NCBI GenBank assembly: GCA_963965975.1
Contig: OZ014412.1
Location: 12,352,849 to 12,416,848, forward strand
DNA from: Xestospongia bergquistia
Taxonomy: Eukaryota > Porifera > Demospongiae > Haplosclerida > Petrosiidae
DNA length: 64,000 nucleotides
Reading direction: 5' to 3'
Shown here: piece after piece, positions 1-61,659 of the stretch
How positions within the stretch are numbered: the stretch's first letter is position 1
How the letters are laid out: each line of letters begins with the position of its first letter
Program-made: the position numbers and the translations under genes
The notes under the pieces: model-generated
What the model saw: the letters and a program-made list of their open reading frames with translations, nothing else
What the model was told of the DNA's origin: nothing
Database searches by the model: none

Positions 1-429
1 AACAGTTTAGAAAGTTGGTTTGCGTTAACACTCTAAAGTCTTTAAATTAAAGACTTTAGAAGGTTTAGACTATTGAGGGAAGTTAATAAAGTAAACAGCT
101 CAGTCTAATGGACTCTATGGGACTAACTAAATGAACTGTTATTAACAGTTTAGTAAGTTGGTTTGCATTAACACTCTGAGGTCTTTAAATTAAAACTTTA
201 GAAGGTTTAGACTATTGAGTGAAGTTAACAAAGTAAACAGCTCAGTTTAAAGGACTCTAAGGGACTAACTCAATAAAATGTTATTAACAGTTTAGTAAGT
301 TGGTTTGCATTAAGACTCTAAAGTCTTTAAATTAAAGACTTAGAAGGTTTAGACTATTGAGTGAAGTTAATAAAGTAAACAGCTCAGTCTAAAGGACTCT
401 ATGGGACTAACTAAAGAAACTGTTATTAA

Positions 430-1000
430 CAGTTAATAAGTTGGTTTCCATTAACACTTTACAGTCTTTAATTTTAAGCCTTTAGAAGGTTTAGACTATT
501 GAGTAAATTTTATAGAGTAAACTGCTCAGTCTAAAGGACTTATGGGACGAAGTAAATAAACTGCCATGAACAGTTTAGTAAGTTCGTTTGCATTAACGCT
601 CTAAACTCTTTAAATTAAAGAGTTTAGAAAGTTTAGCCTATTGAGTGAAGTTTATAAAGTAAACAGCTCAGTCTAAAGGACTCTATGGGACTAAGCAAAT
701 AAACTGCTATTAACAATGTTTTGTAAGTTGGTTTGCATTAACACTCTAAAGTCTTTAAATTAAAGACTTTAGAATGTTTAGACTATTAAGTGAAGATTAT
801 AAAGTAAACAGCTCAATTTAAAGGACTCTATGGGACTAACTAAAGAAATTGTTATTAACACGTTAGTAAGTTGGTTTCCATTAACACCTTACATTCTCTA
901 ATTTTAAGTCTTTAGGAGGTTTAGACTATTGAGTAAATTTTATAGAGTAAACTGCTCAGTCCAAAGGACTCTATGGGACTAACTAAATCAACTGCTATTA
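430..1000. repeat. Divergent monomers at the left edge
   Basis: Contains relatives of the cassette types: GGTTTCCATTAACACTTTAC (about 444), TATGGGACGAAGTAAATAA (about 541), the matched palindrome variant at 601-627, GAAGATTATAAAG (about 793) and a second TTTCCATTAACAC monomer (about 877). The order resembles the cassette at 61.7-62.5 kb more than the 20-27 kb copies. Confidence 0.7.
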
Positions 1001-1261
1001 ACTGTTTAGTCAGTTGGTTTGCATTAACACTCTAAAGTCTTTAAAATAAAGACTTTAGAAGGTTTAGACTATTGAGTGAAGTTAATAAAGTATAAAGCTC
1101 AGTCTAAAGGACTCTATGGGACTAACTAAATGAACTGTTATTAACAGTTTAGTAAGTTGGTTTGCATTGACAATCTAAAGTCTTTAAATTAAAGACTTTA
1201 GAAGGTTTAGACTATTGATTGAAGTTAACAAAGTAAACAGCTCAGTCTAATGGACTCTATG

Positions 1262-1290
1262 GCACTAACTAAATTAACACTCTAAAGTCT
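1262..1290. repeat. Shortened monomer junction (36-bp deletion)
   Basis: After GGCACTAACTAAAT the sequence jumps directly to TAACACTCTAAAG at about 1274/1275. Monomer positions 133-143 and 1-25 are missing, including the whole boundary hairpin, leaving a 107-bp unit. Confidence 0.85.
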
Positions 1291-1580
1291 TTAAATTAAA
1301 GACTTTAGAAGGTTTAGACTATTAAGTGAAGTTATTAAAGTAACAGCTCAGTCTAAAGGACTCAGTGGGACTAACTAAATAAACTGTTATTAACAGTTTA
1401 CTAAGTTGGTTTGCCTTAACACTCTAAAGTCTTTCAGTTAAAGACTTTAGAAGGTTTAGACTATTGATTGAAGTTAACAAAGTAAACAGCTCAGTCTAAA
1501 GGACTCTATGGGACTAACTAAATGAACTCTTATTAACAGTTTAGTAACTTGGTTTGCATTAACAATCTAAAGTTTTTAAA

Positions 1581-1584
1581 TTAA
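1581..1584. repeat. Target-site duplication TTAA, left copy
   Basis: TTAA directly abuts the first base of the transposon and is monomer positions 47-50, just right of the centre of the satellite's main palindrome. An identical TTAA follows the right end of the transposon. Joining the flanks through one TTAA gives an uninterrupted 143-bp monomer, which fixes the insertion boundaries. Confidence 0.9.
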
Positions 1585-1801
1585 AGGGTAACTGAAATGC
1601 GTATTTTGAAATTTTTGAAACTTGATTATTTGTTAAAAATAATATGATAACATGTAAACCTTACTTCTTTTCTTGAAATGGAACTTTCTTTTGAAATAAA
1701 ACGAAGGCAAAGCTTGTTCAATCACAAGTCAGCCATCTTCTTCGTGTTTAAGCAGCAAAATCGGCGAAACGCAATATGACATCACAAGATGAACGATGAA
1801 C
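1585..1801 (+). repeat. Left terminal inverted repeat of the transposon
   Basis: A 217-bp repeat that pairs with the reverse complement of 2770-2986. By hand I count about a dozen differences, including two compensating single-base indels, or roughly 94% identity. The outermost 40 bases match completely. The ATG of the THAP reading frame at 1796 lies within its last six bases, so the inverted repeat supplies the 5' leader, and possibly the promoter, of that gene. The mirror-image copy may serve the minus-strand gene in the same way. Confidence 0.92.
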
Positions 1802-2206
1802 ACTATTCAACACCTGGTAAGAAGTGTGAACTATTGGAAAATACCTAAGAGATGTGTTGCTTTTGGTTGTGGTAATACTGCCAAGGATGGAGTGAGTCTA
1901 TTTTCATTCCCTAAAGATCCAGTACTCAGTAAAAAATGGACTGAGCAAGGAAAGAGAACCAGGGACGAGTGGTTAGGACCAACCAAGTACTCATTTTTGT
2001 GTAGTTGCCACTTTACTGAAGACTGTTTCCAGCCTGATGTAGTTGTAGCTGCTAGTCTAGGATTATCTAAAAGAATGAAACTGAAATCTGATGCTATCCC
2101 AACAGTCTTCAAGAGACCAGTTAGCGAATATCAAACTAAAGAGGCATCACATTTAAAGAAGTCAAAATCAACAAGTAGACATGAACGTTACAAAAGAAGA
2201 AAATAA
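1796..2206 (+). CDS. THAP-domain zinc-finger protein of the transposon
   Basis: A 136-residue frame containing a complete THAP C2CH zinc finger, a sequence-specific DNA-binding fold found in P-element-type transposases, Kolobok-associated proteins and many animal regulators. The ligands are C20, C25 (CVAFGC), C69 and H72 (CSCHF). The conserved FP (38-39) and W48 are present, and the AVPTIF-type box closes the domain as AIPTVF at 100-105. The tail (106-136) is basic and rich in K, R and S, consistent with nuclear localisation. THAP proteins usually start only a few residues before the first cysteine. The about 15 extra residues here may therefore be leader sequence, an alternative start or part of an upstream exon; no other in-frame Met precedes C20. 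The frame has no internal stop. A role in binding the element's ends is inferred. It ends 3 bp before the convergent minus-strand gene. Confidence 0.8.
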   Translation: MNTIQHLVRSVNYWKIPKRCVAFGCGNTAKDGVSLFSFPKDPVLSKKWTEQGKRTRDEWLGPTKYSFLCSCHFTEDCFQPDVVVAASLGLSKRMKLKSDAIPTVFKRPVSEYQTKEASHLKKSKSTSRHERYKRRK

Positions 2207-2209
2207 CAC

Positions 2210-2650
2210 TCACTCATTAATAGCTGATGGTAAAGTTGCAGACCCATATTCTTGTCAGTATTGGTAATACGCAGTTTGTAATGCCCACACATTCAAGCAA
2301 ACAGCATGAAATCCTGGATGGTCAGTGATACATAGGAGTTCAGGTATCTCAGCTTCTTCCATTTTCTCATTCATTTTCATAATTTCTTGCCAGCAAATCC
2401 ACTCTTTTGAAGTACTCATACTTACACAGTGGCTACATGCACACCTATAATCAACATATAATATATATTACAAATGTTATTCCTCATTTATGTTCATACC
2501 AATTAAAGTTTAAAAATCTTTCTGAGGATAGTTCCGAGTCTTCACTACTACTTCTACTATTACTGAATGCTTGGCTATCACTTGGTTCATATAAATAAGG
2601 TAAACAATACCAACAAAAGAATCTTCATCTTCACTATAATCATCCTGCAT
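2210..2650 (-). pseudogene. Decayed P2X7 cytosolic (ballast)-domain-like gene
   Basis: Reading leftwards from an ATG at 2650-2648, the product starts with an acidic stretch (MQDDYSEDEDSF). It shifts frame at 2601-2605, then continues through PYLYEPSDS and a serine- and acid-rich segment to 2500. A 55-bp intron is inferred at 2499-2445. The joined codon then gives WCACSHC, followed by WICWQE and a stretch containing CITDHPGFHAVCLNVW, ALQTAYYQY, an in-frame TGA at 2257-2255, and about 14 more residues to a TGA at 2212-2210. The NWCxCxxC start, the C-rich WQE segment and the ITxHPGF-CLN-W block match the zinc-binding cytosolic domain of P2X7 receptors (Pfam P2RX7_C), which also occurs in stand-alone invertebrate proteins. 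The family commonly has CC before the E; here the second Cys is Trp, so a metal ligand may be lost. Frameshift plus stop make this a pseudogene in this copy. Confidence 0.72.
2445..2499 (-). other. Probable 55-bp intron in the minus-strand gene
   Basis: On the minus strand the segment begins GTATGA and ends TTATAG, canonical donor and acceptor sequences. Removing it joins AAT-TG to G-TGT and places the tryptophan of the expected W-C-x-C-x2-C motif exactly at the junction. Unspliced, the frame hits a stop within a few codons. This spliceosomal intron supports a eukaryotic host. Confidence 0.7.
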
Positions 2651-2769
2651 TGTTGGACTTGAATATTGTTCAGATCCACTAGTTTCTCATTAGCAAGTAC
2701 ATCCATCTCTATAACAGATGCGAAACTATTGAGACATATTACTATAATAACTATACTATAATAACTTGA

Positions 2770-2986
2770 GTTCATCGTTCATCTTGTGATGTCATAATGC
2801 GTTTGCCGATTTTGCTGCTTAAACAGGAAGAAGATGGCTGACTTATGACTCAGCAAGGTTTGACTTCGTTTTATTTCAAAAGAAAGTTCCATTTCAAGAA
2901 AAGGAGTAAGGTTTACATGTTATCACATTATTATTTAACAAATAACCAAGTTTCAAAAATTTCAAAATACGCATTTCAGTTACCCT
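2770..2986 (-). repeat. Right terminal inverted repeat of the transposon
   Basis: Reverse complement of the left inverted repeat over 217 bp, ending CAGTTACCCT. It ends on its inner side at the G at 2770. Short open frames read through it into the satellite on the plus strand, but they have no recognisable content and are not genes. Confidence 0.92.
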
Positions 2987-2990
2987 TTAA
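2987..2990. repeat. Target-site duplication TTAA, right copy
   Basis: TTAA follows the terminal CAGTTACCCT of the transposon. The satellite then resumes at 2991 with monomer position 51, and the next monomer begins at 3084, exactly 93 bases later as the 143-bp register requires. Confidence 0.9.
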
Positions 2991-3083
2991 AGACTTTAGA
3001 AGGTTTAGACTATTGAGTGAAGTTAATAAAGAAAACAGCTCAGTCTAAAGGACTCTATCGGACTAACTAAATAAACTGTTATT

Positions 3084-3226
3084 AACAGTTTAGTAAGTTG
3101 GTTTGTATTAACACTCTAAAGTCTTTAAATTAAAGACTTTAGAAGGTTTAGACTATTGAGTGAAGTTAATAAAGTAAACAGCTCAGTCTAATGGACTGTA
3201 TGGGACTAACTAAATTAACTGTTATT
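3084..3226. repeat. Representative satellite monomer with its three dyads
   Basis: A near-consensus monomer. Its palindrome has arms CTAAAGTCTTTAA and TTAAAGACTTTAG around one central A (monomer 33-59). The second dyad pairs TTTAGACT-ATT-GAG (64-77) with CTCAGTCTAAA (99-109) across a 21-base loop, with ATT bulged. The third pairs TAAACTGTT at a monomer's end with AACAGTTTA at the next one's start across ATT. More than half of the monomer lies in self-complementary segments or the short loops between them. Confidence 0.85.
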
Positions 3227-3560
3227 AACTGTTTAGTAAGTTGGTTTGCATTAAGACTCTAAAGTCTTTAAATTAACGACTTTAGAAGGTTTAGACTATA
3301 GAGTGAAGTTAACAAAGTAAACAGCTCAGTCTAAAGGACTCTATGGGACTAACTACATAAACTGTTATTAACAGTTTAGTAAGTTGGTTTGCATTAACAC
3401 TCTAAAGTCTTTAAATTAATGACTTTAAAGGTTTAGACTATTGATTGAAGTTAATAAAGTAAACAGCTCAGTCTAAAGGACTCTATCGGACTAACTAAAA
3501 AAAATGTTCTTAACAGTTTAGTAAGTTGGTTTGCATTAACACTCTAAAGTCTTTAAATTA

Positions 3561-6500
3561 AAGACTTTAGAAGGTTTCGACTATTGACTGAAGTTAATAA
3601 AGTAAACAGCTCAGTCTAAAGGACTCTATGGGACTAACTAAATAAACTCTTATTAACAGTTTAGTAAGTTGGTTTGCATTAACAATCTAAAGTCTTTAAA
3701 TTAAAGACTTTAGAAGGTTTAGACTATTGAGTGAAGTTAATAAAGTAAACAGCTCAGTCTAAAGGACTGTATGGGGTTAACTAAATAAACTCTTATTAAC
3801 AGTTTAGTAAGTTTGTTGGCATTAACACTCTAAAGTCTTTAAATTAAAGACTTTAGAAGGTTTCGACTATTGAGTGAAGTTAATAAAGTAAACAGCTCAT
3901 ACTAAAGGATTCTATGGCACTAACTAAATAAACACTTATTAACAGTTTAGTAAGTTTGTTCGCATTAACGATCTAAAGTCTTTAAATTAAAGACTTTAGA
4001 AGGTTTAGACTATTGAGTGAAGTTAATAAAGTAAACAGCTCAGTCTAAAGGACTCTATGGGACTAACTAAATAAACTGTTATTAACAGTTTAGTAAGTTG
4101 GTTTGCACTAACACTCTAAAGTCTTTAAATTAAAGACTTTAGAAGGTTTAGACTATTGAGTGAAGATAAGAAAGTAAACAGCTCAGTCTAAAGGACTCTA
4201 TGGGACTAACTATATAAACTGCTATTAATAGTCTAGTAAGTTGGTTTGCTTTAACACTCTAAAGTCTTTAAGTTGAAGTCTTTAGAAGGTTTAGACTATT
4301 GAGTGAAGTTAATAAAGTAAACAGCTCAGTCTAAAGGATTCTATGGGACTAACTAAATAAACTGTTATTAACTGTTTAGTAAGTTGGTTTGCATTCACAC
4401 TCTAAAGTCTTTAAATTAAAGACTTTAGAAGGTTTAGACTATTGAGTGAAGTTAATAAAGTAAAAAGCTCAGTCTAAAGGACTCTATGGGACTAACTAAA
4501 TAAACTGTTATTAACAGTTTAGTAAGTTGGTTTGCATTAGCAATCTAAAGTCTTTAAAGTAAAGACTTTAGAAGGTTTAGACTATTGATTGAAGATAATA
4601 AAGTAAACAGCTCAGTCTAAAGGACTCTATGGGATTAACTAAATAAACTGTTATTAACAGTTTAGTAAGTTGGTTTGCATTAACACTCTAAAGTCTTTAA
4701 ATTAAAGACTTTAGAAGGTTTAGACTATTGAGTGAAGTTAATAAAGTAAACAGCTCAGTCTAAAGGACTCTATGAAACTTACTAAATGATGTGCTATTAA
4801 CAGTTTAGTAAGTTGGTTTGCATTAATACCTAAAGTGTTTAAATTAAAGACTTTAGAAGGTTTGCACTATTAAATGAAGTTAATAAAGTAAACAGCTCGG
4901 TCTAAAGGACTCTATGGGACTAACTAAAGAAACTGTTATTAACAGTTTACTCAGTTGGTTTGCATTAACACTCTAAAGTCTTTAAATTAAAGACTTTAGA
5001 AGGTTTAGACTATTGAGTGAAGTTAATAAAGTAAACAGCTCAGTCTAAAGGACTCTATGGGACTAACTAAATAAACTGTTATTAACAGTTTAGTAAGTTG
5101 GTTTGCATTAGAAATCTAAAGCCTTTTAAGTAAAGACTTTAGAAGGTTTAGACTATTGAGTGAAGTTAATAAAGTAAACAGCTCAGTCTAAAGGACTCTA
5201 TGGGACTAACTAAATAAACTGTTATTAACAGTTTAGTAAGTTGGTTTGCATTAACACTCTAAAGTCTTTAAATGAAAGACTTTAGAAGGTTTAGACTATT
5301 GAGTAAAGTTAATAAAGTAAACAGCTCAGTCTAAAGGACTCTATGGGACTAACTAAATAAACTGCTCTTAACAGTTTAGTAAGTTGGTTTGCATTAATAC
5401 TCTAAAGTGTTTAAATTAAAGACTTTAGAAGGTTTAGACTATTAAGTGAAGTTAACAAAGTAAACAGCTCAGTCTAATGGACTCTATGGGACTAACTAAA
5501 TAAACTGTATTAACAGTTCAGTAAGTTGGTTTGCATTAACTCTATAAAGTCTTTAAATTAAAGACTTTAGAATGTTTCGACTATTGAGTGAAGTTAATAA
5601 AGTAAACAGCTCAGTCTAAAGGACTATATGGGACTAACTAATTAAAATCTTGTTAAACGTTTAGTAAGTTGGTTTGCATTAACAATCTAAAGTCTTTAAA
5701 TTAAAGACTTTAGAAGGTTTAGACTATTGAGTGAAGTTAATACAGTAAACAGCTCAGTCTAAAGGAGTATATGGGGTTAACTAAATAAACTCTTATTAAC
5801 AGTTTAGTAAGTTTGTTTGCATTAACACTCTAAAGTCTTTAAATCAATGACTTTAGAAGGTTTCGACTATTGAGTGAAGTTAATAAAGTAAACAGCTCAT
5901 ACTAAAGGACTCTATGGGACTAACTAAATAAACTCTTATTAACAGTTTAGTAAGTTGGTTGGCAATAACAATCTAAAGTCTTTAAATTAAAGACTTTAGA
6001 AGGTTTAGACTATTGAGAGAAGTTAATGAAGTAAACAGCTCAGTCTAAAGGACTCTATGGGACTAACTAAATAAACTGTTATTAACAGTTTAGTAAGTTG
6101 GTTTGCACTAACACTCTAAAGTCTTTAAATTAAAGACTTTAGAAGGTTTAGACTATTGAGTGAAGATAAGAAAGTAAACAGCTCAGTCTAAAGGACTCTA
6201 TGGGACTAACTAAATAAACTGCTATTAATAGTCTAGTAAGTTGGCTTGCTTTAACACTCTAAAGTCTTTAAATTGAAGACTTTAGAAGATTTAGACTGTT
6301 GAGTGAAGTTAATAAAGTAAACAGCTCAGTCTAAAGGATTCTATGGGACTAACTAAATAAACTGTTATTAACTGTTTAGTAAGTTGGTTTGCATTCACAC
6401 TCTAAAGTCTTTAAATTAAAGACTTTAGAAGGTTTAGACTATTGAGTGAAGTTAATAAAGTAAAAAGCTCAGTCTAAAGGACTCTATGGGACTAACTAAA

Positions 6501-6960
6501 TAAACTGTTATTGACAGTTTAGTTAGTTGGTTTGCATAAACAATCTAAAGTCTTTAAAGTAAAGACTTTAGAAGGTTTAGATTAATGATTGAAGTTAATA
6601 AAGTAAACAGCTCAGTCTAAAGGACTCTATGGGACTAACTAAATAAACTGTTATTAACAGTTTAGTAAGATGCTTTGCATTAACACTCTAAAGTCTTTAA
6701 ATTAAAGACTTTAGAAGGTTTAGACTATTGAGTGAAGTTAATAAAGTAAACAGCTCAGTCTAAAGGACTCTATGAAACTAACTAAATAAACTGCTATTAA
6801 CAGTTTAGTAAGTTGGTTTGCATTAATACTCTAAAGTGTTTAAATTAAAGACATTAGAAGGTTTAGACTATTAAATGAAGTTAATAAAGTAAACAGCTCA
6901 GTCTAAAGGACTCTATGGGACTAACTAAACAAAGTGTTATTAACAGTTTAGTAAGTTGGT
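3561..6960. repeat. 14-monomer duplication, spacing 2,000 bp
   Basis: Variants at about 3561-4960 recur at about 5561-6960 at a constant 2,000-bp offset, two bases short of 14 monomers. Shared private changes include ATGGGGTTAACT (3771 and 5771), the GATAAG variant near 4165 and 6165, the GTCTAGTAAG boundary near 4231 and 6231, and CTATGAAACT near 4770 and 6770. The copies have diverged at scattered positions, so this is an older duplication. Edges are approximate. Confidence 0.8.
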
Positions 6961-9727
6961 TTGCATTAACACTCTAAAGTCTTTAAATTAAAGACTTTAG
7001 AAGGTTTAGACTATTGAGTGAAGTTAATAAAGTAAACAGCTCAGTCTAAAGGACTCTATGGGACTAACTAAATCAACTATTATTAACAGTTTAGTAAGTT
7101 GGTTTGCATTAACACTCTAATGTCTTTAAATTAAAGACTTTAGAAGGTTTAGACTATTGAGTGAAGTTATTAAAGTAAACAGCTTAGTCTAAAGTGCTCA
7201 ATGGGACTAACTATATAAACTATTATTAACAGTTTAGTAAGTTGGTTTGCCTTAACACTCTAAAGTCTTAAATTAAAGACTTTAGAAGGTTTAGACTATT
7301 GATTGAAGTTAATGAAGGAAACAGCTCAGTCTAATGGACTCCATGGGACTAAGTAAATGAACTGTTATTAACAGTTTAGTAAGTTTGTTTGCATTAACAC
7401 TCTAAAGTCTTTAAATTAAAGACTTTAGAAGGTTTAGACTATATAGTGAAGTTAATAAAGTAAACAGCTCAGTCTAAAGGACTCTATGGGACTAACTAAA
7501 TAAACTGTTATTAACAGCATGGTAAGTTTGTTTACATTAACACTCTAAACTCTTTAAATTAAAGAGTTTAGATGGTTTAGCCTATTGAGTGAAGTATATA
7601 AAATAACAGCTCAGTCTAAAGGACTCTATGGGACTAACTAAATAAACTGTTATTAACAGTTTAGTAAGTTGCTTTGCTTTAACACTCTAAAGTCTTTAAA
7701 TTAAAGACTTTAGAAGGTTTAGACTATTGATTGAAGTTAACAAGGTAAACAGCTCAGTCTAAAGGACTCTATGGGGCTAACTAAATGAACTGTTATTAAC
7801 AGTTTTGTAAGGTGGTTTGCATTAACATTCTAAAGTCTTTAAATTAAAGACTTTAGAAGGTTTAGACTATTGAGTGAAGTTAATAAAGTAAACAGCTCAG
7901 TCTAAAGGACTCTATGGGACTAGCTAAATAAACTGTTTTTATCAGTTTAATAAGTTGGTTTGCATTAACACTCTAAAGTCTTTAAATTAAAGACTTTAGA
8001 AGGTTTAGACTATTGAGTGAAGTTAATAAAGTAAACAGCTCAGTCTAAAGGACTCTATGAAACTAACTAAATAAACTGCTATTAACAGTTTAGTAAGTTG
8101 CTTTGCTTTAACACTCTAAAGTCTTTAAATTAAAGACTTTAGAAGGTTTAGACTATTGATTGAAGTTAACAAGGTAAACAGCTCAGTCTAAAGGACTCTA
8201 TGGGACTAACTAAATGAACTGTTATTAACAGTTTTGTAAGGTGGTTTGCATTAACATTCTAAAGTCTTTAAATTAAAGACTTTAGAAGGTTTAGATTAAT
8301 GATTGAAGTTAATAAAGTAAACAGCTCAGTCTAAAGGACTCTATGGGACTAACTAAATAAACTGTTATTAACAGTTTAGTAAGATGCTTTGCATTAACAC
8401 TCTAAAGTCTTTAAATTAAAGACTTTAGAAGGTTTAGACTATTGAGTGAAGTTAATAAAGTAAACAGCTCAGTCTAAAGGACTCTATGAAACTAACTAAA
8501 TAAACTGCTATTAACAGTTTAGTAAGTTGGTTTGCATTAATACTCTAAAGTGTTTAAATTAAAGACATTAGAAGGTTTAGACTATTAAATGAAGTTAATA
8601 AAGTAAACAGCTCAGTCTAAAGGACTCTATGGGACTAACTAAACAAAGTGTTATTAACAGTTTAGTAAGTTGGTTTGCATTAACACTCTAAAGTCTTTAA
8701 ATTAAAGACTTTAGAAGGTTTAGACTATTGAGTGAAGTTAATAAAGTAAACAGCTCAGTCTAAAGGACTCTATGGGACTAACTAAATCAACTATTATTAA
8801 CAGTTTAGTAAGTTGGTTTGCATTAACACTCTAACGTCTTTAAATTAAAGACTTTAGAAGGTTTAGACTATTGAGTGAAGTTATTAAAGTAAACAGCTTA
8901 GTCTAAAGTGCTCAATGGGACTAACTATATAAACTATTATTAACAGTTTAGTAAGTTGGTTTGCCTTAACACTCTAAAGTCTTAAATTAAAGACTTTAGA
9001 AGGTTTAGACTATTGATTGAAGTTAATGAAGGAAACAGCTCAGTCTAATGGACTCCATGGGACTAAGTAAATGAACTGTTATTAACAGTTTAGTAAGTTT
9101 GTTTGCATTAACACTCTAAAGTCTTTAAATTAAAGACTTTAGAAGGTTTAGACTATATAGTGAAGTTAATAAAGTAAACAGCTCAGTCTAAAGGACTCTA
9201 TGGGACTAACTAAATAAACTGTTATTAACAGCATGGTAAGTTTGTTTACATTAACACTCTAAACTCTTTAAATTAAAGAGTTTAGATGGTTTAGCCTATT
9301 GAGTGAAGTATATAAAATAACAGCTCAGTCTAAAGGACTCTATGGGACTAACTAAATAAACTGTTATTAACAGTTTAGTAAGTTGCTTTGCTTTAACACT
9401 CTAAAGTCTTTAAATTAAAGACTTTAGAAAGTTTAGACTATTGATTGAAGTTAACAAGGTAAACAGCTCAGTCTAAAGGACTCTATGGGACTAACTAAAT
9501 GAACTGTTATTAACAGTTTTGTAAGGTGGTTTGCATTAACATTCTAAAGTCTTTAAATTAAAGACTTTAGAAGGTTTAGACTATTGAGTGAAGTTAATAA
9601 AGTAAACAGCTCAGTCTAAAGGACTCTATGGGACTAGCTAAATAAACTGTTTTTATCAGTTTAATAAGTTGGTTTGCATTAACACTCTAAAGTCTTTAAA
9701 TTAAAGACTTTAGAAGGTTTAGACTAT
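6571..9727. repeat. 12-monomer duplication, spacing 1,714 bp
   Basis: The segment 6571 to about 8013 is repeated almost base for base at 8285 to about 9727, offset 1,714 bp (12 monomers minus 2). Shared markers are TTTAGATTAATGATTG, AAGATGCTTTGC, the paired CTAAACTC/GAGTTTAG palindrome variant (7545 and 9259) and GACTAGCTAAATAAACTG (7919 and 9633). A weaker, broken third version appears at about 15.96-18.45 kb. The high identity indicates recent amplification. Confidence 0.85.
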
Positions 9728-44460: not shown

Positions 44461-44500
44461 TTAAGTGAAGTTAATAAAGTAATTTAAATTAAAGACTTTA
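44461..44500. repeat. Shortened monomer junction (89-bp deletion)
   Basis: After TTAATAAAGTAA (monomer position 94) the sequence continues at TTTAAATTAAAG (position 41 of the next copy) at about 44482. It lacks 89 bp and shifts the array register. It lies at the left edge of the 17-monomer duplication. Confidence 0.85.
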
Positions 44501-47500
44501 GAAGGTTTAGACTATTGAGTGAAGTTAATAAAGTAAACAGCTCAGTCTAAAGGACTCTATGGGACTAACTAAATAAACTGCTATTAACAGTCTAGTAAGT
44601 TGGTTTGCATTAATACTCTAAAGTGTTTAAATTAAAGACTTTAGAAGGTTTAGACTATTATGTGAAGTTAATAAAGTAAACAGCTCAGTCAAAAGGACTC
44701 TATGGGACTAACTAAATAAACTGTTATTAACAGTTTAGTAAGTTGGTTTGCATTAACACTCTAAAGTCTTTAAATTAAAGACTTTAGAAGGTTTAGACTA
44801 TTGAGTGAAGTTAATAAAGTAAACAGCTCAGTCTAAAGGACTCTATGGGACTAACTAAATAAACTGTTATTAACAGTTTAGTAGGTTGGTTTGCATTAAC
44901 ACTCTAAAGGCTTTAAATTAAAGACTTTAGAAGGTTTAGACTATTGAGTGAAGTAAACAAAGTAAACAGCTCAGTCTAAAGAACTCTATGGGACTAACTA
45001 AATAAACTGTTATTAACAGTTTAGTAAGTTGGTTTGCCTTAACAATCTAAAGTCTTTAAATTAAAGACTCTAAAAGGTTTAGACTTTTGAGTGAAGTTAA
45101 CATAGTAAACAGCTCAGTCTAAAGGACTCTATGGGACTAACTAATTCAACTGTTATTAACAGTTTAGTAAGTTGGTTTGCATTAACACTCTAAAGTCATT
45201 AAATTAAAGACTTTAGATGGTTTAGACTATTGAGTGAAGTTATTAAAGTAAACAGCTTAGTCTAAAGTACTCAATGTGACTAACTAAATTAACTGCTATT
45301 AACAGTTTAGTAAGTTGGTTTGCGTTAATTTCCTAAAGTGTTTAAATTAAAGACTTTAGAAGGTTTAGACTATTAAGTGAAGTTAATAAAGTAAACAGCT
45401 CAGTCTAAAGGACTCTATGGGACTAACTAAATGAACTGTTATTAACAGTTTAGTAAGTTGGTTTGCATTAACACTCTAAAGTCTTTAAATTAAAGACATT
45501 AGAAGGTTTAGACTATTGAGTGAAGTCAATAAAGTAAACAGCTCAGTCTAAAGGACTCTATGGGACTAACTAAATAAACTGCTGTTAACAGTTTAGTAAG
45601 TTGGTTTGCATTAATACTCTAAAGTGTTTAAATTAAAGACTTTAGAAGGTTTAGACTACTAAGTGAATTTAATAAAGTAAACAACTCAGTCTAAAGGACT
45701 CTATGGGACAAACTAAATAAAATGTTATTAACAGTTTTGTAAGTTGGTTTGCATTAATACTCTAAAGTTTTTAAATTAAAGACTTTAGAAGGTTTAGACT
45801 ATTGACTGAAGTTAACAAAGTAAACAGCTCAGTCTAATGGACTCTATGGGACTAACTAAATGAACTGTTATTAAAAGTTTAGTAAGTTGGTTTGCATTAA
45901 CTCTATAAAGTCTTTAAATTAAAGACTTTAGAAGGTTTAGACTATTGAGTGAAGTGAAAAAAGTAAACAGCTGAGTCTAAAGGATTCTATGGGACTAACT
46001 AAATAAACTGTTATTAACAGTTTAGTAAGTTGGTTTGCATTAACACTCTAAAGTCTTTAAATTAAAGACTTTAGAAGGTTTAGACTATTGAGTGAAGTAA
46101 ACAAAGTAAACAGCTCAGTCTAAAGGACTCTATGGGACTAACTAAATAAACTGTTATTAACAGTTTAGTAAGTTGGTTTGCCTTAACAGTCTAAAGTCTT
46201 TAAATTAAAGACTCTAAAAGGTTTAGACTTTTGAGTGAAGTTAACATAGTAAACAGCTCAGTCTAAAGGACTCTATGGGACTAACTAATTCAACTGTTAT
46301 TAACAGTTTAGTAAGTTTGTTTGCATTATCACTCTAAAGTCTTTAAATTAAAGACTTTAGAAGGTTTAGACTATTGAGTGAAGATATTAAAGTAAACAGC
46401 TTAGTCTAAAGTACTCGATGTGACTAACTAAATAAACTGCTATTAACAGTTTAGTAAGTTGGTTTGCGTTAATTTCCTAAAGTGTTTAAATTAAAGACTT
46501 TAGAAGATTTAGACTATTAAGTGAAGTTAATAAGGTAAACAGCTCAGTCTAAAGGACTCTATGGGACTAACTAAATGAACTGTTATTAACAGTTTAGTAA
46601 GTTGGTTTGCATTAACACTCTAAAGTCTTTAAATTAAAGACTGTAGAAGGTTTCGACTATTGAGTGAAGTGAATAAAGTAAACAGCTCAGTCTAAAGGAT
46701 TCTATGGGACTAACTAAATAAACTGTTATTAACAGTTTAGTAAGTTGGTTTGCATTAATACTCTAAAGTCTTTAAATTTAAGACTTTAGAAGGTTTCGCC
46801 TATTGACTGAAGTTAATAATGTAAACAGCTCAGTCTAAAGGACTCTATGGGACTAACTAAATAACCTCTTATTAACAGTTTAGTAATTTGGTTTGCATTA
46901 ACACTCTAAAGTCTTTAAATTAAAGACTTTAGAAGGTTTAGACTATTGAGTGAAGTTAATAAAGTAAACAGCTCAGTCTAAAGGACTCTATGGGACTAAC
47001 TAAATAAACTGCTATTAACAGTCTAGTAAGTTGGTTTGCATTAATACTCTAAAGTGTTTAAATTAAAGACTTTAGAAGGTTTAGACTATTATGTGAAGTT
47101 AATAAAGTAAACAGCTCAGTCAAAAGGACTCTATGGGACTAACTAAATAAACTGTTATTAACAGTTTAGTAAGTTGGTTTGCATTAACACTCTAAAGTCT
47201 TTAAATTAAAGACTTTAGAAGGTTTAGACTATTGAGTGAAGTTAATAAAGTAAACAGCTCAGTCTAAAGGACTCTATGGGACTAACTAAATAAACTGTTA
47301 TTAACAGTTTAGTAGGTTGGTTTGCATTAACACTCTAAAGGCTTTAAATTAAAGACTTTAGAAGGTTTAGACTATTGAGTGAAGTAAACAAAGTAAACAG
47401 CTCAGTCTAAAGAACTCTATGGGACTAACTAAATAAACTGTTATTAACAGTTTAGTAAGTTTGTTTGCCTTAACAATCTAAAGTCTTTAAATTAAAGACT

Positions 47501-49350
47501 CTAAAAGGTTTAGACTTTTGAGTGAAGTTAACATAGTAAACAGCTCAGTCTAAAGGACTCTATGGGACTAACTAATTCAACTGTTATTAACAGTTTAGTA
47601 AGTTGGTTTGCATTAACACTCTAAAGTCATTAAATTAAAGACTTTAGATGGTTTAGACTATTGAGTGAAGTTATTAAAGTAAACAGCTTAGTCTAAAGTA
47701 CTCAATGTGACTAACTAAATAAACTGCTATTAACAGTTTAGTAAGTTGGTTTGCGTTAATTTCCTAAAGTGTTTAAATTAAAGACTTTAGAAGGTTTAGA
47801 CTATTAAGTGAAGTTAATAAAGTAAACAGCTCAGTCTAAAGGACTCTATGGGACTAACTAAATGAACTGTTATTAACAGTTTAGTAAGTTGGTTTGCATT
47901 AACACTCTAAAGTCTTTAAATTAAAGACATTAGAAGGTTTAGACTATTGAGTGAAGTCAATAAAGTAAACAGCTCAGTCTAAAGGACTCTATGGGACTAA
48001 ATAAATAAACTGCTGTTAACAGTTTAGTAAGTTGGTTTGCATTAATACTCTAAAGTGTTTAAATTAAAGACTTTAGAAGGTTTAGACTACTAAGTGAATT
48101 TAATAAAGTAAACAGCTCAGTCTAAAGGACTCTATGGGACAAACTAAATAAAATGTTATTAACAGTTTTGTAAGTTGGTTTGCATTAATACTCTAAAGTC
48201 TTTAAATTAAAGACTTTAGAAGGTTTAGACTATTGACTGAAGTTAACAAAGTAAACAGCTCAGTCTAATGGACTGTATGGGACTAACTAAATGAACTGTT
48301 ATTAAAAGTTTAGTAAGTTGGTTTGCATTAACTCTATAAAGTCTTTAAATTAAAGACTTTAGAAGGTTTAGACTATTGAGTGAAGTGAAAAAAGTAAACA
48401 GCTGAGTCTAAAGGATTCTATGGGACTAACTAAATAAACTGTTATTAACAGTTTAGTAAGTTGGTTTCCATTAACACTCTAAAGTCTTTAAATTAAAGAC
48501 TTGAGAAGGTTTAGACTATTGAGTGAAGTAAACAAAGTAAACAGCTCAGTCTAAAGGACTCTATGGGACTAACTAAATAAACTGTTATTAACAGTTTAGT
48601 AAGTTGGTTTGCCTTAACAATCTAAAGTCTTTAAATTAAAGACTCTAAAAGGTTTAGACTTTTGAGTGAAGTTAACATAGTAAACAGCTCAGTCTAAAGG
48701 ACTCTATGGGACTAACTAATTCAACTGTTATTAACAGTTTAGTAAGTTTGTTTGCATTATCACTCTAAAGTCTTTAAATTAAAGACTTTAGAAGGTTTAG
48801 ACTATTGAGTGAAGTTATTAAAGTAAACAGCTTAGTCTAAAGTACTCGATGTGACCAACTAAATAAACTGCTATTAACAGTTTAGTAAGTTGGTTTGCGT
48901 TAATTTCCTAAAGTGTTTAAATTAAAGACTTTAGAAGATTTAGACTATTAAGTGAAGTTAATAAGGTAAACAGCTCAGTCTAAAGGACTCTATGGGACTA
49001 ACTAAATGAACTGTTATTAACAGTTTAGTAAGTTGGTTTGCATTAACACTCTAAAGTCTTTAAATTAAAGACTGTAGAAGGTTTCGACTATTGAGTGAAG
49101 TGAATAAAGTAAACAGCTCAGTCTAAAGGATTCTATGGGACTAACTAAATAAACTGTTATTAACAGTTTAGTAAGTTGGTTTGCATTAACACTCTAAAGT
49201 CTTTAAATTACAGACTTTAGAAGGTTTAGACTATTGAGTGAAGTACAATAAAGTAAACAGCTCAGCCTAAAGGACTCTACGGGACTAACTAAATAAACTG
49301 CTATTAACAGTTTAGTAAGTTGGTTTGCATTAATACTCTAAAGTGTTTAA
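44490..49350. repeat. 17-monomer higher-order duplication (2,431 bp)
   Basis: GTCTAGTAAG-type boundaries at 44581 and 47012, and TGCGTTAATTTCC at 45321/47752 and 46465/48896, all give an offset of exactly 2,431 bp (17 x 143). Inside the unit, the TGCGTTAATTTCC monomers are 8 then 9 units apart, so the 17-mer is itself an 8+9 duplication. Identity is high. A weaker extension of the variants continues to about 50.4 kb and reappears near 52.2-53.0 kb. Confidence 0.85.
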
Positions 49351-50999
49351 ATTAAAGACTTTAGAAGGTTTAGACTACTAAGTGAATTTATTAAAGTAAA
49401 CAGCTCAGTCTAAAGGACTCTATGGGACTAACTAAATAAACTGTTATTAACAGTTTAGTAAGTTGGCTTGCATTAACACTCTAGAGTCTTTAAATTAAAG
49501 ACTTTAGAAGGTTTAGACTATTGAGTGAAGTACACAAAGTAAACAGCTCAGTCTAAAGGACTCTATGGGACTAACTAAATAAACTGTTATTAACAGTTTA
49601 GTAAGTTGGTTTGCCTTAACAATCTAAAGTCTTTAAATTAAAGACTCTGAAAGGTTTAGACTTTTGATTGAAGTTAACAAAGTAAACAGCTTAGTCTAAA
49701 GGACTCTATGGGACTAACTAATTCAACTGTTATTAACAGTTTAGTAAGTTGGTTTGCATTAACACTCTAAAGTCTTTAAATTAAAGACTTTAGAAGGTTT
49801 AGACTATTCAGTGAAGTTATTAAAGTAAACAGCTTAGTCTAAAGTACTCAATGTGACTAACGAAATAAACTGCTATTAACAGTTTAGTAAGTTTGTTTGC
49901 GTTAGTTTCCTAAAGTGTTTAAATTAAAGACTTTAGAAGATTTAGACTATTAAGTGAAGTTAATAAAGTAAACAGCTCAGTCTAAAGGACTCTATGGGAC
50001 TAACTAAATGAACTGTTATTAACAGTTTAGTAAGTTGGTTTGCATTCACACTCTAAAGTCTTTAAATTAAAGACTGTAGAAGGTTTCGACTATTGAGTGA
50101 AGTGAATAAAGTAAACAGCTCAGTCTAAAGGATTCTATGGGACTAACTAAATAAACCGTTATTAACAGTTTAGTAAGTTGGTTTGCATTAACACTCTAAA
50201 GTCTTTAAATTACAGACTTTAGAAGGTTTAGACTATTGAGTGAAGTCAATAAAGTAAACAGCTCAGTCTAAAGGACTCTACGGGACTAACTAAATAAACT
50301 GCTATTAACAGTTTAGTAAGTTGTTTTGCATTAATACTCTAAAGTGTTTAAATTAAAGACTTTAGAAGGTTTAGACTACTAAGTGAATTTAATAAAGTAA
50401 ACAGCTCAGTCTAAAGGACTCTATGGGACTAACTAAATAAACTGTTATTAACTGTTTAGTAAGTTGGTTTGCATTAACACTCTAAAGTCTTTAAATTAAA
50501 GACTTTAGAAAGTTTAGACTATTGACTGAAGTTAAAAAAGTAAACAGCTCAGTCTAAAGGACTCTATGGGACTAACTAAATGAACTTTTATTAACAGTTT
50601 AGTAAGTTGGTTTGCATTAACACTCTAAAGTCTTTAAATTAAAGACTTTAGAAGGTTTCGACTATTGAGTGAAGTTAATAAAGTAAACAGCTCAGTCTAA
50701 AGGACTCTATGGGACTAACTAAATTAACTGCTATTAACAGTTTAGTAAGTTGGTTTGCATTAACACTCTAAAGTCTTTAAATTAAAGACTTTAGAAGGTT
50801 TAGACTATTGACTGAAGTTAACAAAGTAAACAGCTCAGTCTAAAGGACTCTATTGGACTAACTAATTCAACTGTTATTAACAGTTTAGTAAGTTGGTTTG
50901 CATTAACACTCTAAAGTCTTTAAATTAAAGACTTTAGAAGGTTTAGACTATTGAGTCAATTTATTAAAGTAAACAGCTTAGTCTAAAGTACTCAATGTG

Positions 51000-53900
51000 A
51001 CTAACTAAATAAACTGTTATTAACAGTTTAGTAAGTTGGTTTGCCTTAACACTCTAAAGTCTTTAAATTAAAGACTTTAGAAGGTTTAGACTATTGAGTG
51101 AAGTTAACGAAGTAAACAGCTCAGTCTAATGGACTCTATGGGACTAACTAAACGAACTGTTATTAGTAGTTTAGCAAGTTGGTTTGCATTAACAATCTAA
51201 AGTCTTTAAATTAAAGACTTTAGAAGGTTTAGACTATTGAGTGAAGTGAATAAAGTAAACAGCTCAGTGTAAAGGATTCTATGGGACTAACTAAATAAAC
51301 TGTTACTAACAGTTTAGTAAGTTGGTTTGCATTAACACTCTAAAGTCTTTAAATTAAAGACTTTAGAAGGGTTAGACTATTGAGTGAAGTAAACAAAGTA
51401 AGCAGCTCAGTCTAAAGGACTCTATGGAAATAACTAAATCAACTGTTATTAACAGTTTAGTAAGTTGGTTTGCCTTAACAATCTAAAGTCTTTAAATTAA
51501 AGACTCTAAAAGGTTTAGACTTTTGAGTGAAGTTAACAAAGTAAACAGCTCAGTCTAAAGGACTCTATGCGACTAACTAAATGAACTGTTATTAACAGTT
51601 TAGTAAGTTTGTTTGCATTAACATTCTAGTCTTTAAATTAAAGACTTTACAAGGTTAAGACTATTGATTGAAGTTAATAAAGTAAACAGCTTAGTTTAAA
51701 GGACTCTATGAGACTAACTAAATAAACCGTTATTAACAGTTTAGTAAGTTGGTATGCATTAACACTCTAAAGTCTTTAAGTTAAAGACTTTAGAAGGTTT
51801 AGACTATTGAGTGAATTTAATAAAGTAAACAGCTCAGTCTAAAGGACTCTATGGGACTAACTAAATAAACTGTTATTAACAGTTTAATAAGTTGGCTTGC
51901 CTTAACACTCTAAAGTCTTTAAATTAAAGACTTTAGAAGGTTTAGACTATTGATTCAAGTTAACAAAGTAAAAAGCTCAGTCTAATGGAATCTATGGGAC
52001 TAACTAAATGAACTATTATTAACAGTTTATTAAGTTGGTTTGCATTAACACTCTAAAGTCTTTAAATTAAAGACTTCAGAAGTTTTAGACTATTGAGTGA
52101 AGTTAATAAAGTAAACAGCTCAGTCTCAAGGACTCTATGGGACTAACTAAATAAATTGTTATTAACAGTTTAGTAAGTTGGTTTGCCTTAACAATCTAAA
52201 GTCTTTAAATTAAAGACTCTAAAAGGTTTAGACTTTTGAGTGAAGTTAACATAGTAAACAGCTCAGTCTAAAGGACTCTATGGGACTAACTAATTCAACT
52301 GTTATTAACAGTTTAGTAAGTTGGTTTGCATTAACACTCTAAAGTCTTTAAATTTAAGACTTTAGAAGGTTTAGACTATTGAGTGAAGTTATTAAAGTAA
52401 ACAGCTTAGTCTAAAGTACTCAATGTGACTAACTAAATAAACTGCTATTAACAGTTTAGTAAGTTTGTTTGCGTTAATTTCCTAAAGTGTTTAAATTAAA
52501 GACTTTAGAAGATTTAGACTATTAAGTGAAGTTAATAAAGTAAACAGCTCAGTCTAAAGGACTCTATGGGACTAACTAAATGAACTGTTATTAACAGTTT
52601 AGTAAGTTGGTTTGCATTCACACTCTAAAGTGTTTAAATTAAAGACTGTAGAAGGTTTCGACTATTGAGTGAAGTGAATAAAGAAAACAGAGCAGTCTAA
52701 AGGATACTATGGGACTAACTAAATAAACTGTTATTAACAGTTTAGTAAGTTGGTTTGCATTAACACTCTAAAGTCTTTAAATTACAGACTTTAGAAGGTT
52801 TAGACTATTGAGTGAAGTCAATAAAGTAAACAGCTCAGTCTAAAGGACCCTACGGGACTAACTAAATGAACTGCTATTAACAGTTTAGTAAGTTGGTTTG
52901 CATTAATACTCTAAAGTGTTTAAATTAAAGACTTTAGAAGGTTTAGACTACTAAGTGAATTTAATAAAGTAAACAGCTCAGTCTAAAGGACTCTATGGGA
53001 CTAACTAAATAAACTGTTATTAACAGTTTAGTAAGTTGGCTTGCATTAACACTCTAAAGTCTTTAAATTAAAGACTTTAGAAGGTTTCGACTATTGAGTG
53101 AAGTTAATAAAGTAAACAGCTCAGTCTAAAGGACTCTATGGGACTAACTAAATAAACTGTTATTAACAGTTTAGTAAGTTGGTTTGCACTAACACTCTAA
53201 AGTCTTTAAATTAAAGACTTTAGAAGGCTTAGACTATTGAGTGAATTTATTAAAGTAAACAGCTTAGTCTAAAGTACTCAATGTGACTAACTAAATAAAC
53301 TGTTATTAACGGTTTAGTAAGTTGGTTTGCCTTAACACTCTAAAGTCTTTAAATTAAAGACTTTAGAAGGTTTAGACTATTGAGTGAAGTTAACGAAGTA
53401 AACAGCTCAGTCTAATGGACTCTATGGGACTAACTAAACGAACTGTTATTAGTGGTTTAGCAAGTTGGTTTGCATTAACAATCAAAAGTCTTTAAATTAA
53501 AGACTTTAGAAGGTTTAGACTATTTAGTGAAGTGAATAAAGTAAACAGCTCAGTCTAAAGGATTCTATGGGACTAACTAAATAAACTGTTATTAACAGTT
53601 TAGTAAGTTGGTTTGCATTAACACTCTAAAGTCTTTAAATTAAAGACTTTAGAAGGTTTAGACTATTGAGTGAAGTAAACAAAGTAAGCAGCTCAGTCTA
53701 AAGGACTCTATGGAAATAACTAAATAAACTGTTATTAACAGTTTAGTAAGTTGGTATGCCTTAACAATCTAAAGTCTTTAAATTAAAGACTCTAAAAGGT
53801 TTAGACTTTTGAGTGAAGTTAACAAAGTAAACAGCTCAGTCTAAAGGACTCTATGCGACTAACTAAATGAACTGTTATTAACAGTTTAGTAAGTTTGTTT

Positions 53901-54060
53901 GCATTAACATTCTAGTCTTTAAATTAAAGACTTTACAAGGTTAAGACTATTGATTGAAGTTAATAAAGTAAACAGCTTAGTTTAAAGGACTCTATGAGAC
54001 TAACTAAATAAACCGTTATTAACAGTTTAGTAAGTTGGTATGCATTAACACTCTAAAGTC
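51000..54060. repeat. 16-monomer duplication, spacing 2,286 bp
   Basis: About 51.0-51.77 kb is repeated at about 53.29-54.06 kb. AACGAACTGTTATTAG at 51151 and 53437 and ACATTCTAGTCTTTAAATT at 51621 and 53907 both give 2,286 bp, two short of 16 monomers. The shared ACATTCTAGTC variant is a three-base internal deletion in both copies. Confidence 0.82.
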
Positions 54061-57000
54061 TTTAAATTAAAGACTTTAGAAGGTTTAGACTATTTATTCA
54101 AGTTAATAAAGTAAACAGCTCAGTCCAAAGGACTCTAAGGGACTAACTAAATAAACTGTTGTTAAAAGTTTAGTAAGTTGGCTTGCTTTAACACTCAAAA
54201 GTCTTTAAATTAAAGACTTTAGAAGTTTCAGACTATTGAGTGAAGTTAATAAAGTAAACAGCTCAGTCTAAAGGACTCTATGGGACTAACTAATTCAACT
54301 GTTATTAACAGTTTAGTAAGTTGGTTTGCATTAACACTCTAAAGTCTTTAAATTAAAGACTTTAGAAGGTTTAGACTATTGAGTGAAGTTATTAAAGTAA
54401 ACAGCTTAGTCTAAAGTACTCAATGTGACTAACTAAATAAACTGTTATTAACAGTTTAGTAAGTTGGTTTGCCTTAACACTCTAAAGTCTTTAAATTAAA
54501 GACTTTAGAAGGTTTAGACTATTGATTGAAGTTAACGAAGTAAACAGCTCAGTCTAATGGACTCTATGGGGCTAACTAAATGAACTGTTATTAACAGTTT
54601 AGTAAGTTGGTTTGCATTAACACTCTAAAGTCTTTAAATTAAAGACTTTAGAAGGTTTAGACTGTATAGTGAAGTTAATAAAGTAAACAGCTCAGTCTAA
54701 AGGACTCTATGGGACTAACTAATTCAACTGTTATTAACAGTTTTGTAAGTTGGTTTCCCTTAACAATCTAAAGTCTTTAAATTAAAGACTTTATAAGGTT
54801 TAGACTATTGATTGAAGTTAACAAAGTAAAAAGCTCAGTCTAATGGACTCTATGGGACTAACTAAATGAACTCTTATTAACTGTTTATATTGTTGGTTTG
54901 CATTAACACTCTAAAGTCTTTAAATTAAAGACTTTAGAAGGTTTAGACTATTGAGTTAAGTTAACAAGGTAAACAGCTCAGTCTAAAGGACTCTATGCGA
55001 CTAACTAAATAAACTTTTCTTAACAGTTTAGTAAGTTGGTTTACATTAACACTCTAAAGTCTTTAAATTAAAGACATTAGTAGGTTTAGACTATTGAGTG
55101 AAGTTAATAAAGTAAACAGCTCAGTCTAAAGGATTCTATGGGACTAACTAAATAAACTGTTATTAACAGTTTAGTAACTTGGTTTGCATTAACACTCTAA
55201 AGTCTTTAAATTAAAGACTTTAGAATGTTTAGACTATTTATTCAAGTTAATAAAGTAAACAGCTCAGTCTAAAGGACTCTATGGGATTAACTAAATAAAC
55301 TGTTATTAACAGTTTAGTAAGTTGGTTTGCATGAACACTCTAAAGTCTTTAAATTAAAGACTTTAGAAGGTTTAGACTATTGAGTGAAGTTAATAAAGTA
55401 AACAGCTCAGTCTAAAGGACTCTTTGGGACAAACTAAATAAACTGTTATTACAGTTTAGTAAGTTGGTTTCCCTTAACAATCTAAAGTCTTTAAATTAAA
55501 GACTTTATAAGGTTTAGACTATTGATTGAAGTTAACAAAGTAAACAGCTCAGTCTAATGGACTCTATGGGACTAACTAAATGAACTGTTATTAACAGTTT
55601 ATATTGTTGGTTTGCATTAACAATCTAAAGTCTTTAAATTAAAGACTTTAGAAGGTTTACACTAGTGAGTTAAGTAAACTAGGTAAACAGCTCAGTCTAA
55701 AGGACTCTATGGGACTAACTAAATAAACTGTTATTAACAGTTTAGTAAGTTGGTTTGCATTAAGACTCTAAAGTCTTTAACTTAAAGACTTTAGAAGGTT
55801 TAGACTATTGAGTGAAGTTAATAAAGTAAACAGCTCAGTCTAAAGGATTCTATGGGACTAACGAAATAAAATGTTATTAACAGTTTAGTAAGTTGGTTTG
55901 CATTAACACTCTAAAGTCTTTAAATTAAAGACTTTAGAATGTTTAGACTATTGAGTGAAGTTAATAAAGTAAACAGCTCAGTCTAAAGGACTCTATGGTA
56001 CTAACTAAATGAACTGTTATTAACAGTTTAGTAAGTTGGTTTGCCTTAACACTCTAAAGTCTTTAAATTAAAGACTTTAGAATGTTTAGACTTTTGATTG
56101 AAGTTGACAAAGTAAACACCTCAGTCTAATGGACTCTAAGGGACTAACTTATTTAACTGTTCTAAACAGTTTAGTAAGTTTGTTCGCATTAACACTCTAA
56201 AGTCTTTAAATTCAAGACATTAGAAGGAATAGACTATTGAGTGAAGTTAATAAAGAAAACAGCTCAGTCTAAAGGACTATATGGGACTAACTAAATAAAC
56301 TGTTATTAACAGTTTAGTAAGTTGGTTTGCGTTAACACTCTAAATTCTTTAAATTAAAGACTTTAGAATTTTTAGACTATTGAGTGAAGTTAATAAAGAC
56401 AACACCTCAGTCTAAACGACTCTATTGGACTAACCAAATAAACTGCTATTAACAATGTTTAGAAAGTTGATTTGCATTAACACTCTAAAGTCTTTAAATT
56501 AAAGAGTTTAGAAGGTTTAGACTATTGAGTGAAGTGAATAAAGTAAACAGCTCAGTCTAAAGGACTCTATGGGACAAAATAAATAAACTGTTATTAACAG
56601 TTTAGTAAGTTGATTTCCCTTAACAATCTAAAGTCTTTAAATTAAAGACTTTATAAGGTTTAGACTATTGATTGAAGTTAATAAAGTAAACAGCTCTGTC
56701 TCAAGGACTCTATGGGACTAACTAATTCAACTGTTTTTAACGGTTTAGTAAGTTGGTTGGCATTAACACTCTAAAGTCTTTAAATTAAAGACTTTAGAAG
56801 GTTTAGACTATTGAGTGAAGTTATTAAAGTAAACAGCTTAGTCTAAAGTACTCAATGTGACTAACTAAATAAACTGTTATTAACAGTTTAGTAAGTTGGT
56901 TTGCCTTAACTCTCTAAAGTCTTTAAATTAAAGACTTTAGAAGGTTTAGACTATTGATTGAAGTTAACAAAGTAAACAGCTCAGTCTAATGGACTCTATG

Positions 57001-60000: not shown

Positions 60001-60187
60001 GACTAACTAAATAAACTGTTAGTAACAGTTTAGTAAGTTGGTTTGCATTAACACTCTAAAGTCTTCAAATTAAAGATTTAGAAGGTTTAGACTATTGAGT
60101 GAAGTTAATAAAGTAAAAAGCTCAGTCTAAAGGACTCTATGGGACTAACTAAATAAACTGTTAATAACAGTTTAGTAAGTTTGTTTG

Positions 60188-61300: not shown

Positions 61301-61659
61301 ACTGCTATTAACAGTTTAGTAAGTTGGTTTGCATTAACACTTTAAAGTCTTGAAATTAAAGACTTTAGAAGGTTTAGACTATTGAGTGAAGTTAATAAAG
61401 TAAACAGCTCAGTCTAAAGGACTCTATGGAACTAACTAAATAAACTGCTATTAACAGTTTAGTAAGTTTGTTTGCATTAACACTCTAAAGTCTTTAAATT
61501 AAAGACTTTAGAAGGTTTAGACTATTGAGTGAAGTTAATAAAGTAAACAGCTCAGTCTAAAGGACTCTATGGGACTAACTAAAAAAAATGTTATTAACAG
61601 TTTAGTAAGTTGGTTTGTATTAACACTCTAAAGTCTTTAAATTAAAGACTTTTGAAAGT

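What the first reader, a model, noticed from the sequence alone, without database searches (positions are those of the whole stretch)
1796..2650. Transposon carrying a convergent THAP gene and a P2X7-ballast-like gene, without transposase
Both genes are DNA- or metal-binding domain proteins, each reading inward from one inverted repeat and ending 3 bp apart. Stand-alone P2X7-type cytosolic domains are expanded in some invertebrates. Carriage by a TTAA transposon would offer a route for their spread and for the capture of this domain. I know of no described element with this pair, but cannot search.
Basis: partly seen in the sequence, partly recalled or inferred. Interest (0 to 1): 0.8.

Follow-up and report, generated by a model that had tools for sequence, protein, structure and literature searches.

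The report
Deleted Kolobok transposon in satellite DNA
This is a broken, internally deleted copy of a known kind of animal DNA transposon (Kolobok, Kol0 type) that keeps the DNA-binding start of its transposase gene and a decayed piece of its second gene, the one related to the tail of the P2X7 receptor; it is ordinary.

Summary
The anatomy is real. Window 1585-2986 is a TTAA-flanked element with about 220-bp inverted repeats, inserted in a 143-bp satellite array. It holds a THAP frame (PF05485, E 2e-16) and, convergent, a P2X7-ballast-like frame. Three corrections. (1) The 3-bp gap is a deletion scar at about 2200: the ten other two-ended copies carry about 660 bp or more extra there, and relative L019 has transposase pieces between the two genes. 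(2) The minus-strand gene is a pseudogene (premature TGA, shifted first exon, third exon lost) and by itself gives no Pfam hit. Spliced relatives from five sequence groups in the same genome reach P2RX7_C (28-53 bits, cut-off 23.5), and their profile finds only P2X7 chains in the PDB. (3) The kind is described: Kojima and Bao 2022 report that Kol0-lineage Kolobok elements encode a transposase plus KolX, a ballast-fold protein, and derive the P2X7 tail from it; THAP is a usual part of Kolobok transposase (PMC6004289). The window copy is a non-autonomous deletion derivative of a known kind. A selection test on the THAP-only frame in a clade lacking the core was not significant, with low power, so a repressor role has no support here.

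The parts
1581..1584 (.). left TTAA target-site duplication
   Evidence: the two flanks printed, read by eye, make up a satellite unit
2987..2990 (.). right TTAA target-site duplication
1585..1801 (.). left terminal inverted repeat, AGGGTAACTG..., about 220 bp
   Evidence: (94% over 221 bases with TTAA)
2770..2986 (.). right terminal inverted repeat
1796..2206 (+). THAP frame, probably the N-terminal part of the transposase gene, cut short by the deletion; THAP domain about 1853-2110
   Evidence: PF05485 E 2e-16, 61 bits, residues 21-106 of P0001
2200..2201 (.). internal deletion junction (transposase core, transposase C-terminal tail and KolX exon 3 missing)
   Evidence: relatives break at query 620-625; junction letters compared with 11 other copies
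2213..2444 (-). KolX exon 2 remnant (P2X7-ballast-like), in-frame TGA at 2257-2255; the apparent end TGA 2212-2210 lies inside a GTGAGT donor-like site
   Evidence: exon limits inferred from splice consensus
2500..2782 (-). KolX exon 1 remnant, reading frame shifted relative to other copies
   Evidence: exon limits inferred
2445..2499 (-). KolX intron 1 (inferred from GT..AG and from the frame of relatives)

Best explanation
Window 1581-2990 is a non-autonomous, internally deleted copy of a Kolobok DNA transposon of the Kol0 type. The parent element has long TIRs, TTAA target sites, a plus-strand THAP-DDE transposase gene entering from one TIR and a minus-strand KolX (P2X7-ballast fold) gene entering from the other. 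In this copy one deletion removed everything between the THAP exon and KolX exon 2, leaving the two stubs 3 bp apart. It moved because a transposase made elsewhere recognised its intact TIRs, and it landed in a TTAA of a satellite unit. Shown here: TIRs, TSD, satellite target, THAP, relation of KolX to P2X7, deletion relative to sister copies, transposase pieces in relatives. Inferred: THAP and core form one spliced gene, mobilisation in trans, the exact exon borders, and any role of KolX in transposition.
For: TIR/TSD anatomy. Eleven two-ended copies of the same family in the 146-Mb genome, window included; 26 TIR ends against 1 for the reversed pattern. TTAA intact on both sides in 9 of the 10 other two-ended family-A copies (L010 is the exception). 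Deletion shown against L009, L011, L012 and L019. Transposase pieces between THAP and KolX in L019: GDGQADSPG, VTDRH, an H2CH-like cluster, SAEAFH. In the family-B relative L027/L050, on one strand after THAP: GDGRADSPG, VTDRR, DIWH, an H2CH-like cluster, SLEGFH. KolX reaches P2RX7_C at 28.1-53.1 bits in 5 of 5 spliced relatives; the profile of these five finds only P2X7 chains in the PDB, best E 4.1e-6. Published Kolobok features: TTAA, 5'-RR/YY-3', THAP, DDE, H2CH, KolX (passages).
Against: No intact full-length autonomous member was found: L019 shows no family TIR end and its frames are broken. L019 reads CNLWH where the published C/DxxH motif is expected, so that motif is not exactly met there. 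No core piece tested reached a Pfam cut-off, so the Kolobok assignment of the core rests on motifs read by eye. No tree with named Kolobok transposases was built. The orientation of KolX in published Kol0 elements was not found in the passages read.
Confidence: 0.95

Rival explanations
1. A self-standing kind of transposon whose cargo is a convergent THAP + ballast gene pair, with no transposase of its own by design.
For: The pair is convergent without a detected core in several sequence groups (L029, L033, L034, L036, L038, L044, L045, L047), and 11 of 11 two-ended family-A copies keep both segments. A core query matched only 3 places in the genome, against 63 KolX matches (lower bounds, one query from family A).
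Against: Shorter copies also keep C-terminal transposase pieces and break at different points, as internal deletions do. L019 and L027/L050 hold the core. KolX exon 2 has stops in 8 of 12 family-A copies. THAP shows no significant constraint in the clade sharing the core deletion.
Confidence: 0.03
2. The truncated THAP protein of the deletion copies acts as a repressor of the parent transposase, as the KP protein of P elements does, and is kept for that.
For: P-element KP analogy and the suggestion made for catalytically dead Xenopus Kolobok proteins (passages). THAP frame open over the compared stretch in 7 of 12 family-A copies. Over all ten copies fitted, omega is 0.57 with 2dlnL 3.89, borderline at 5%, but those branches include ancestry with the core.
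Against: In the clade that shares the core deletion omega is 0.62 and not different from 1 (2dlnL 1.76), and 1.1 in its younger part. Five of 12 THAP frames are broken. Power is low.
Confidence: 0.05
3. A piggyBac-type TTAA element with a KolX-like gene (a few such are mentioned in print).
For: TTAA target; [quoted passage not shown]
Against: Termini are AG..CT (5'-RR/YY-3'), the feature by which PMC9587614 sets Kolobok apart from piggyBac. THAP and Kolobok-type core motifs in relatives.
Confidence: 0.01

Closest known systems
Kolobok DNA transposons, Kol0 lineage (Kolobok-1_XT type; transposase + KolX), Kojima and Bao 2022, PMC9587614
   Same: TTAA target, RR/YY termini, a KolX protein related to the P2X7 ballast; lineage reported from vertebrates, annelids, cnidarians and sponges
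   Different: The window copy lacks the transposase core and KolX exon 3. That paper's main text does not mention THAP, and KolX orientation was not found in the passages read.
Xenopus XKol transposons and T2-MITEs (PMC6004289)
   Same: AG termini, TTAA, THAP with C2CH, PWF and AVPTIF-like box (window: AIPTVF), truncated copies
   Different: Full-length elements listed there are 6.8-13.9 kb; KolX is not mentioned in the passages seen
P-element internally deleted copies with the KP repressor (PMC7776569)
   Same: Deletion derivative that keeps the termini and the N-terminal DNA-binding part
   Different: Different superfamily; no repressor activity was tested here
P2X7 receptor C-terminal ballast / ZCD proteins, nanor (Rump et al. 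2020, PMC7016195)
   Same: Homologous domain (P2RX7_C)
   Different: No channel part; here it is a transposon gene

Membership tests
Kolobok superfamily | TTAA 4-bp target-site duplication | tested here: met
   Window and 9 of 10 other two-ended family-A copies, L010 the exception. The 8 two-ended elements of other groups also have it, but they were picked by requiring TTAA.
Kolobok superfamily | Termini 5'-RR ... YY-3' | tested here: met
   AG...CT in the window; definition from PMC9587614
Kolobok superfamily | THAP domain with C2CH, P-W-F and AVPTIF-like box | tested here: met
   PF05485 E 2e-16; box AIPTVF read; definition
Kolobok superfamily | DDE catalytic core with H2CH cluster | tested here: not met
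   Absent from the window copy by deletion. Motifs present in relatives L019 and L027/L050, read by eye. Hence filed as a non-autonomous derivative of such an element.
Kolobok superfamily | Core falls inside Kolobok on a tree with named members | not tested
Kol0 lineage | Second protein KolX with P2X7-ballast similarity | tested here: met
   5 of 5 spliced relatives above the P2RX7_C cut-off and PDB P2X7. The window copy itself has only broken exons 1-2 and no hit.
Kol0 lineage | Seven zinc-binding cysteines of KolX | tested here: inconclusive
   Seven in four of the five aligned relatives; the family-B sequence has Y at one. The window copy keeps five: one is W, one lay in the lost exon 3. 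Mapping onto the P2X7 zinc residues is recalled.
piggyBac | Termini not of the RR/YY type (as contrasted with Kolobok in PMC9587614) | tested here: not met
   Termini are AG..CT
P superfamily | 8-bp target-site duplication (given for zebrafish P-like elements) | tested here: not met
   TSD is 4-bp TTAA

The most novel reading that the evidence does not exclude
Several Kol0-type groups in this genome have shed the transposase core while keeping ends, THAP and KolX. The retained pair could be a functional unit in its own right: THAP holds the TIRs and KolX acts with a transposase supplied in trans, or represses it. That would make these elements a self-spreading regulator rather than debris.
Probability: 0.05. 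Interest if true: 0.5.

Novelty: new member of a known kind. Interest (0 to 1): 0.15.

Why it matters
It gives another genome in which the P2X7-ballast domain is transposon-borne, in several sequence groups, in agreement with the published proposal that the tail of P2X7 came from a Kolobok KolX gene. It also warns that gene-pair and spacing readings from one deleted copy mislead. The element itself is ordinary.

Tried and rejected
P2RX7_C on the window's own pieces: no hit; an 83-aa query of KolX exon 1 end plus exon 2 reached only 12.1 bits, E 0.18. The third exon found in relatives settled it.

Idea that the 5.4-kb copies L017 and L030 are full-length parents with a MULE-type transposase: rejected. 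Each insert has its own ACAAGCC.TTAGG ends and a 10-bp (TGAAGAATTA) or 9-bp (TGAATGCTC) duplication, so both are nested insertions. PF10551 was scored for L017 only; L030 is called a MULE by likeness to it, read by eye.

Selection on THAP-only frames: not supported. Pairwise dN/dS runs from 0.28 to 1.29 where dS is above zero, with no clear trend among the young copies (0.34 to 1.03 within L014-L018). IQ-TREE codon runs printed no omega, so I fitted a small codon model of my own: seven deletion-sharing copies omega 0.62, 2dlnL 1.76; four younger ones 1.1, 2dlnL 0.02; ten copies in all 0.57, 2dlnL 3.89. L016 (THAP identical to L015) and L019 were left out.

TIR search at 20 other KolX places: 8 have both ends with TTAA, 8 more show at least one family end near KolX, 4 show none nearby (L035, L039, L042, L043). 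One search also listed AT-rich chance-like pairs in some loci, not used. Most of the weaker matches were not fetched.

Not used: structure prediction, fold search, scans of viral or genome collections. Papers seen: PMC9587614 abstract, outline, passages and section 10; PMC6004289, PMC7016195 and PMC7776569 passages only; the rest search listings only.

Full report
What is there. The window is almost wholly a 143-bp satellite. At 1581-2990 it is interrupted by an element with TTAA on both sides and inverted repeats of about 220 bp that begin AGGGTAACTG. The two flanks, read by eye, make up a satellite unit; a 25-base core of that unit occurs 183 times in the window. The plus strand holds a THAP frame, 1796-2206 (PF05485, E 2e-16). 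Read through one TGA (2257-2255), it ends at 2210, 3 bp from the THAP stop.

Other copies. The genome (146 Mb, 21 contigs, unnamed) holds 11 copies of this family with both ends, the window copy included, and 5 single ends; a TIR pattern with up to 2 mismatches gives 26 ends, its reversed control 1. All 11 have THAP and KolX segments (for the ten others; for the window). The longer copies part from the window at the same point, about window 2200, where they have more sequence: some 660 bp in the 2.0-kb copies, 885 in L009 and 1,500 in L012 (L017 more, with a nested insert). At the junction the window reads like L009, L012 and L019, and on the tree it groups with L009 and L012, while eight copies (L010, L011, L013-L018) share a different deletion. 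The 3-bp spacing is thus a scar.

The parent. L019 (C10), in which no family end was found, has plus-strand transposase pieces between THAP and the minus-strand KolX: GDGQADSPG, VTDRH, an H2CH-like cluster and SAEAFH. A second family (L027 with L050) has, after THAP on the same strand, GDGRADSPG, VTDRR, DIWH, an H2CH-like cluster and SLEGFH. In a third group (L049) a core piece with GDGRCDSPG is convergent with KolX exons. These agree with published Kolobok marks: DDE, C/DxxH, H2CH, THAP, TTAA, RR/YY (passages and one section). L019 itself reads CNLWH at C/DxxH. No core piece tested reached a Pfam cut-off, so this step rests on motifs. One core query matched only 3 places in the genome.

The ballast gene. 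In relatives KolX has a further exon (AYCQLV.W ... LPACAV.KI ... YVGFK). With it, 5 of 5 spliced relatives from five sequence groups pass the P2RX7_C cut-off (28.1, 38.9, 43.0, 47.0, 53.1 bits against 23.5); two of the five joins mix copies of one family. Their profile finds four distinct PDB sequences, all P2X7, at 4.1e-6 to 6.7e-6. The window copy has lost this exon, has a TGA in exon 2 and a shifted exon 1, and gives no Pfam hit. What looks like its stop lies in a GTGAGT donor-like site (inferred).

Breadth in the genome. One search lists 63 KolX matches, some overlapping. Of the 20 further loci fetched, 8 have both TTAA ends, 8 more at least one family end near KolX, and 4 none nearby. THAP, sought with the family-A sequence, is convergent with KolX in 10 of the 20 (L029, L030, L033, L034, L036, L038, L039, L044, L045, L047; L039 weak), on the same strand in 2 (L042; L035 weak) and not found in 8. 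Family ends are AGGGTAACTGAAATGCG (window), AGGGTAACAGAA, AGGGTAACTGAACCCC and AGGGAGGGTATC.

Function. Among 12 family-A copies the THAP frame is free of stops and gaps over the compared stretch in 7 (window, L009, L013-L016, L018), and KolX exon 2 is free of stops in 4 (L010-L013). In the clade that shares the deletion of the core (7 copies fitted), omega of THAP is 0.62 and not different from 1 (2dlnL 1.76); in its younger part it is 1.1; over ten copies, ancestry with the core included, it is 0.57 (2dlnL 3.89, borderline). With 133 codons the power is low. The copies look like passengers moved in trans (inference).

What is known. Kojima and Bao (PMC9587614; abstract, passages and one section seen) state that Kol0 Kolobok families encode a transposase and KolX, that KolX has the cytoplasmic ballast fold, that the lineage occurs in vertebrates, annelids, cnidarians and sponges, and that P2X7 arose by fusion with KolX. 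Rump et al. (PMC7016195, passages) had described the domain across animals; the passage search found no mention of transposons there, and it names an Ixodes protein that joins the domain to one printed as TAHP. The finding is therefore a new, degenerate member of a known kind.

Noticed in passing
L017 (C1, element 497-5931) and L030 (C15, element 3184-8525): Two Kolobok-type elements each carry a nested insert coding for a MULE-type transposase (PF10551 scored for L017) with ACAAGCC.TTAGG ends and 10-bp and 9-bp target duplications.
   Followed up: partly
window 1-1580 and 2991-64000: A 143-bp satellite fills nearly the whole window; TRF counts about 290 units at 2987-44482 and 137 at 44475-64000.
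   Followed up: no
L015 and L016 (C7:1908240-1910240 and C7:1903385-1905385): Two family-A copies with identical compared THAP sequence lie about 2.9 kb apart in opposite orientation, with different flanking bases.
   Followed up: no
window 1786-1801 and 2770-2785: The inner end of the repeat carries two ATGs in different frames (AAGATGAACGATGAAC). The KolX frame of relatives opens at the first and the THAP frame has an upstream ATG at the second, so one repeat could supply both genes with a start.
   Followed up: no
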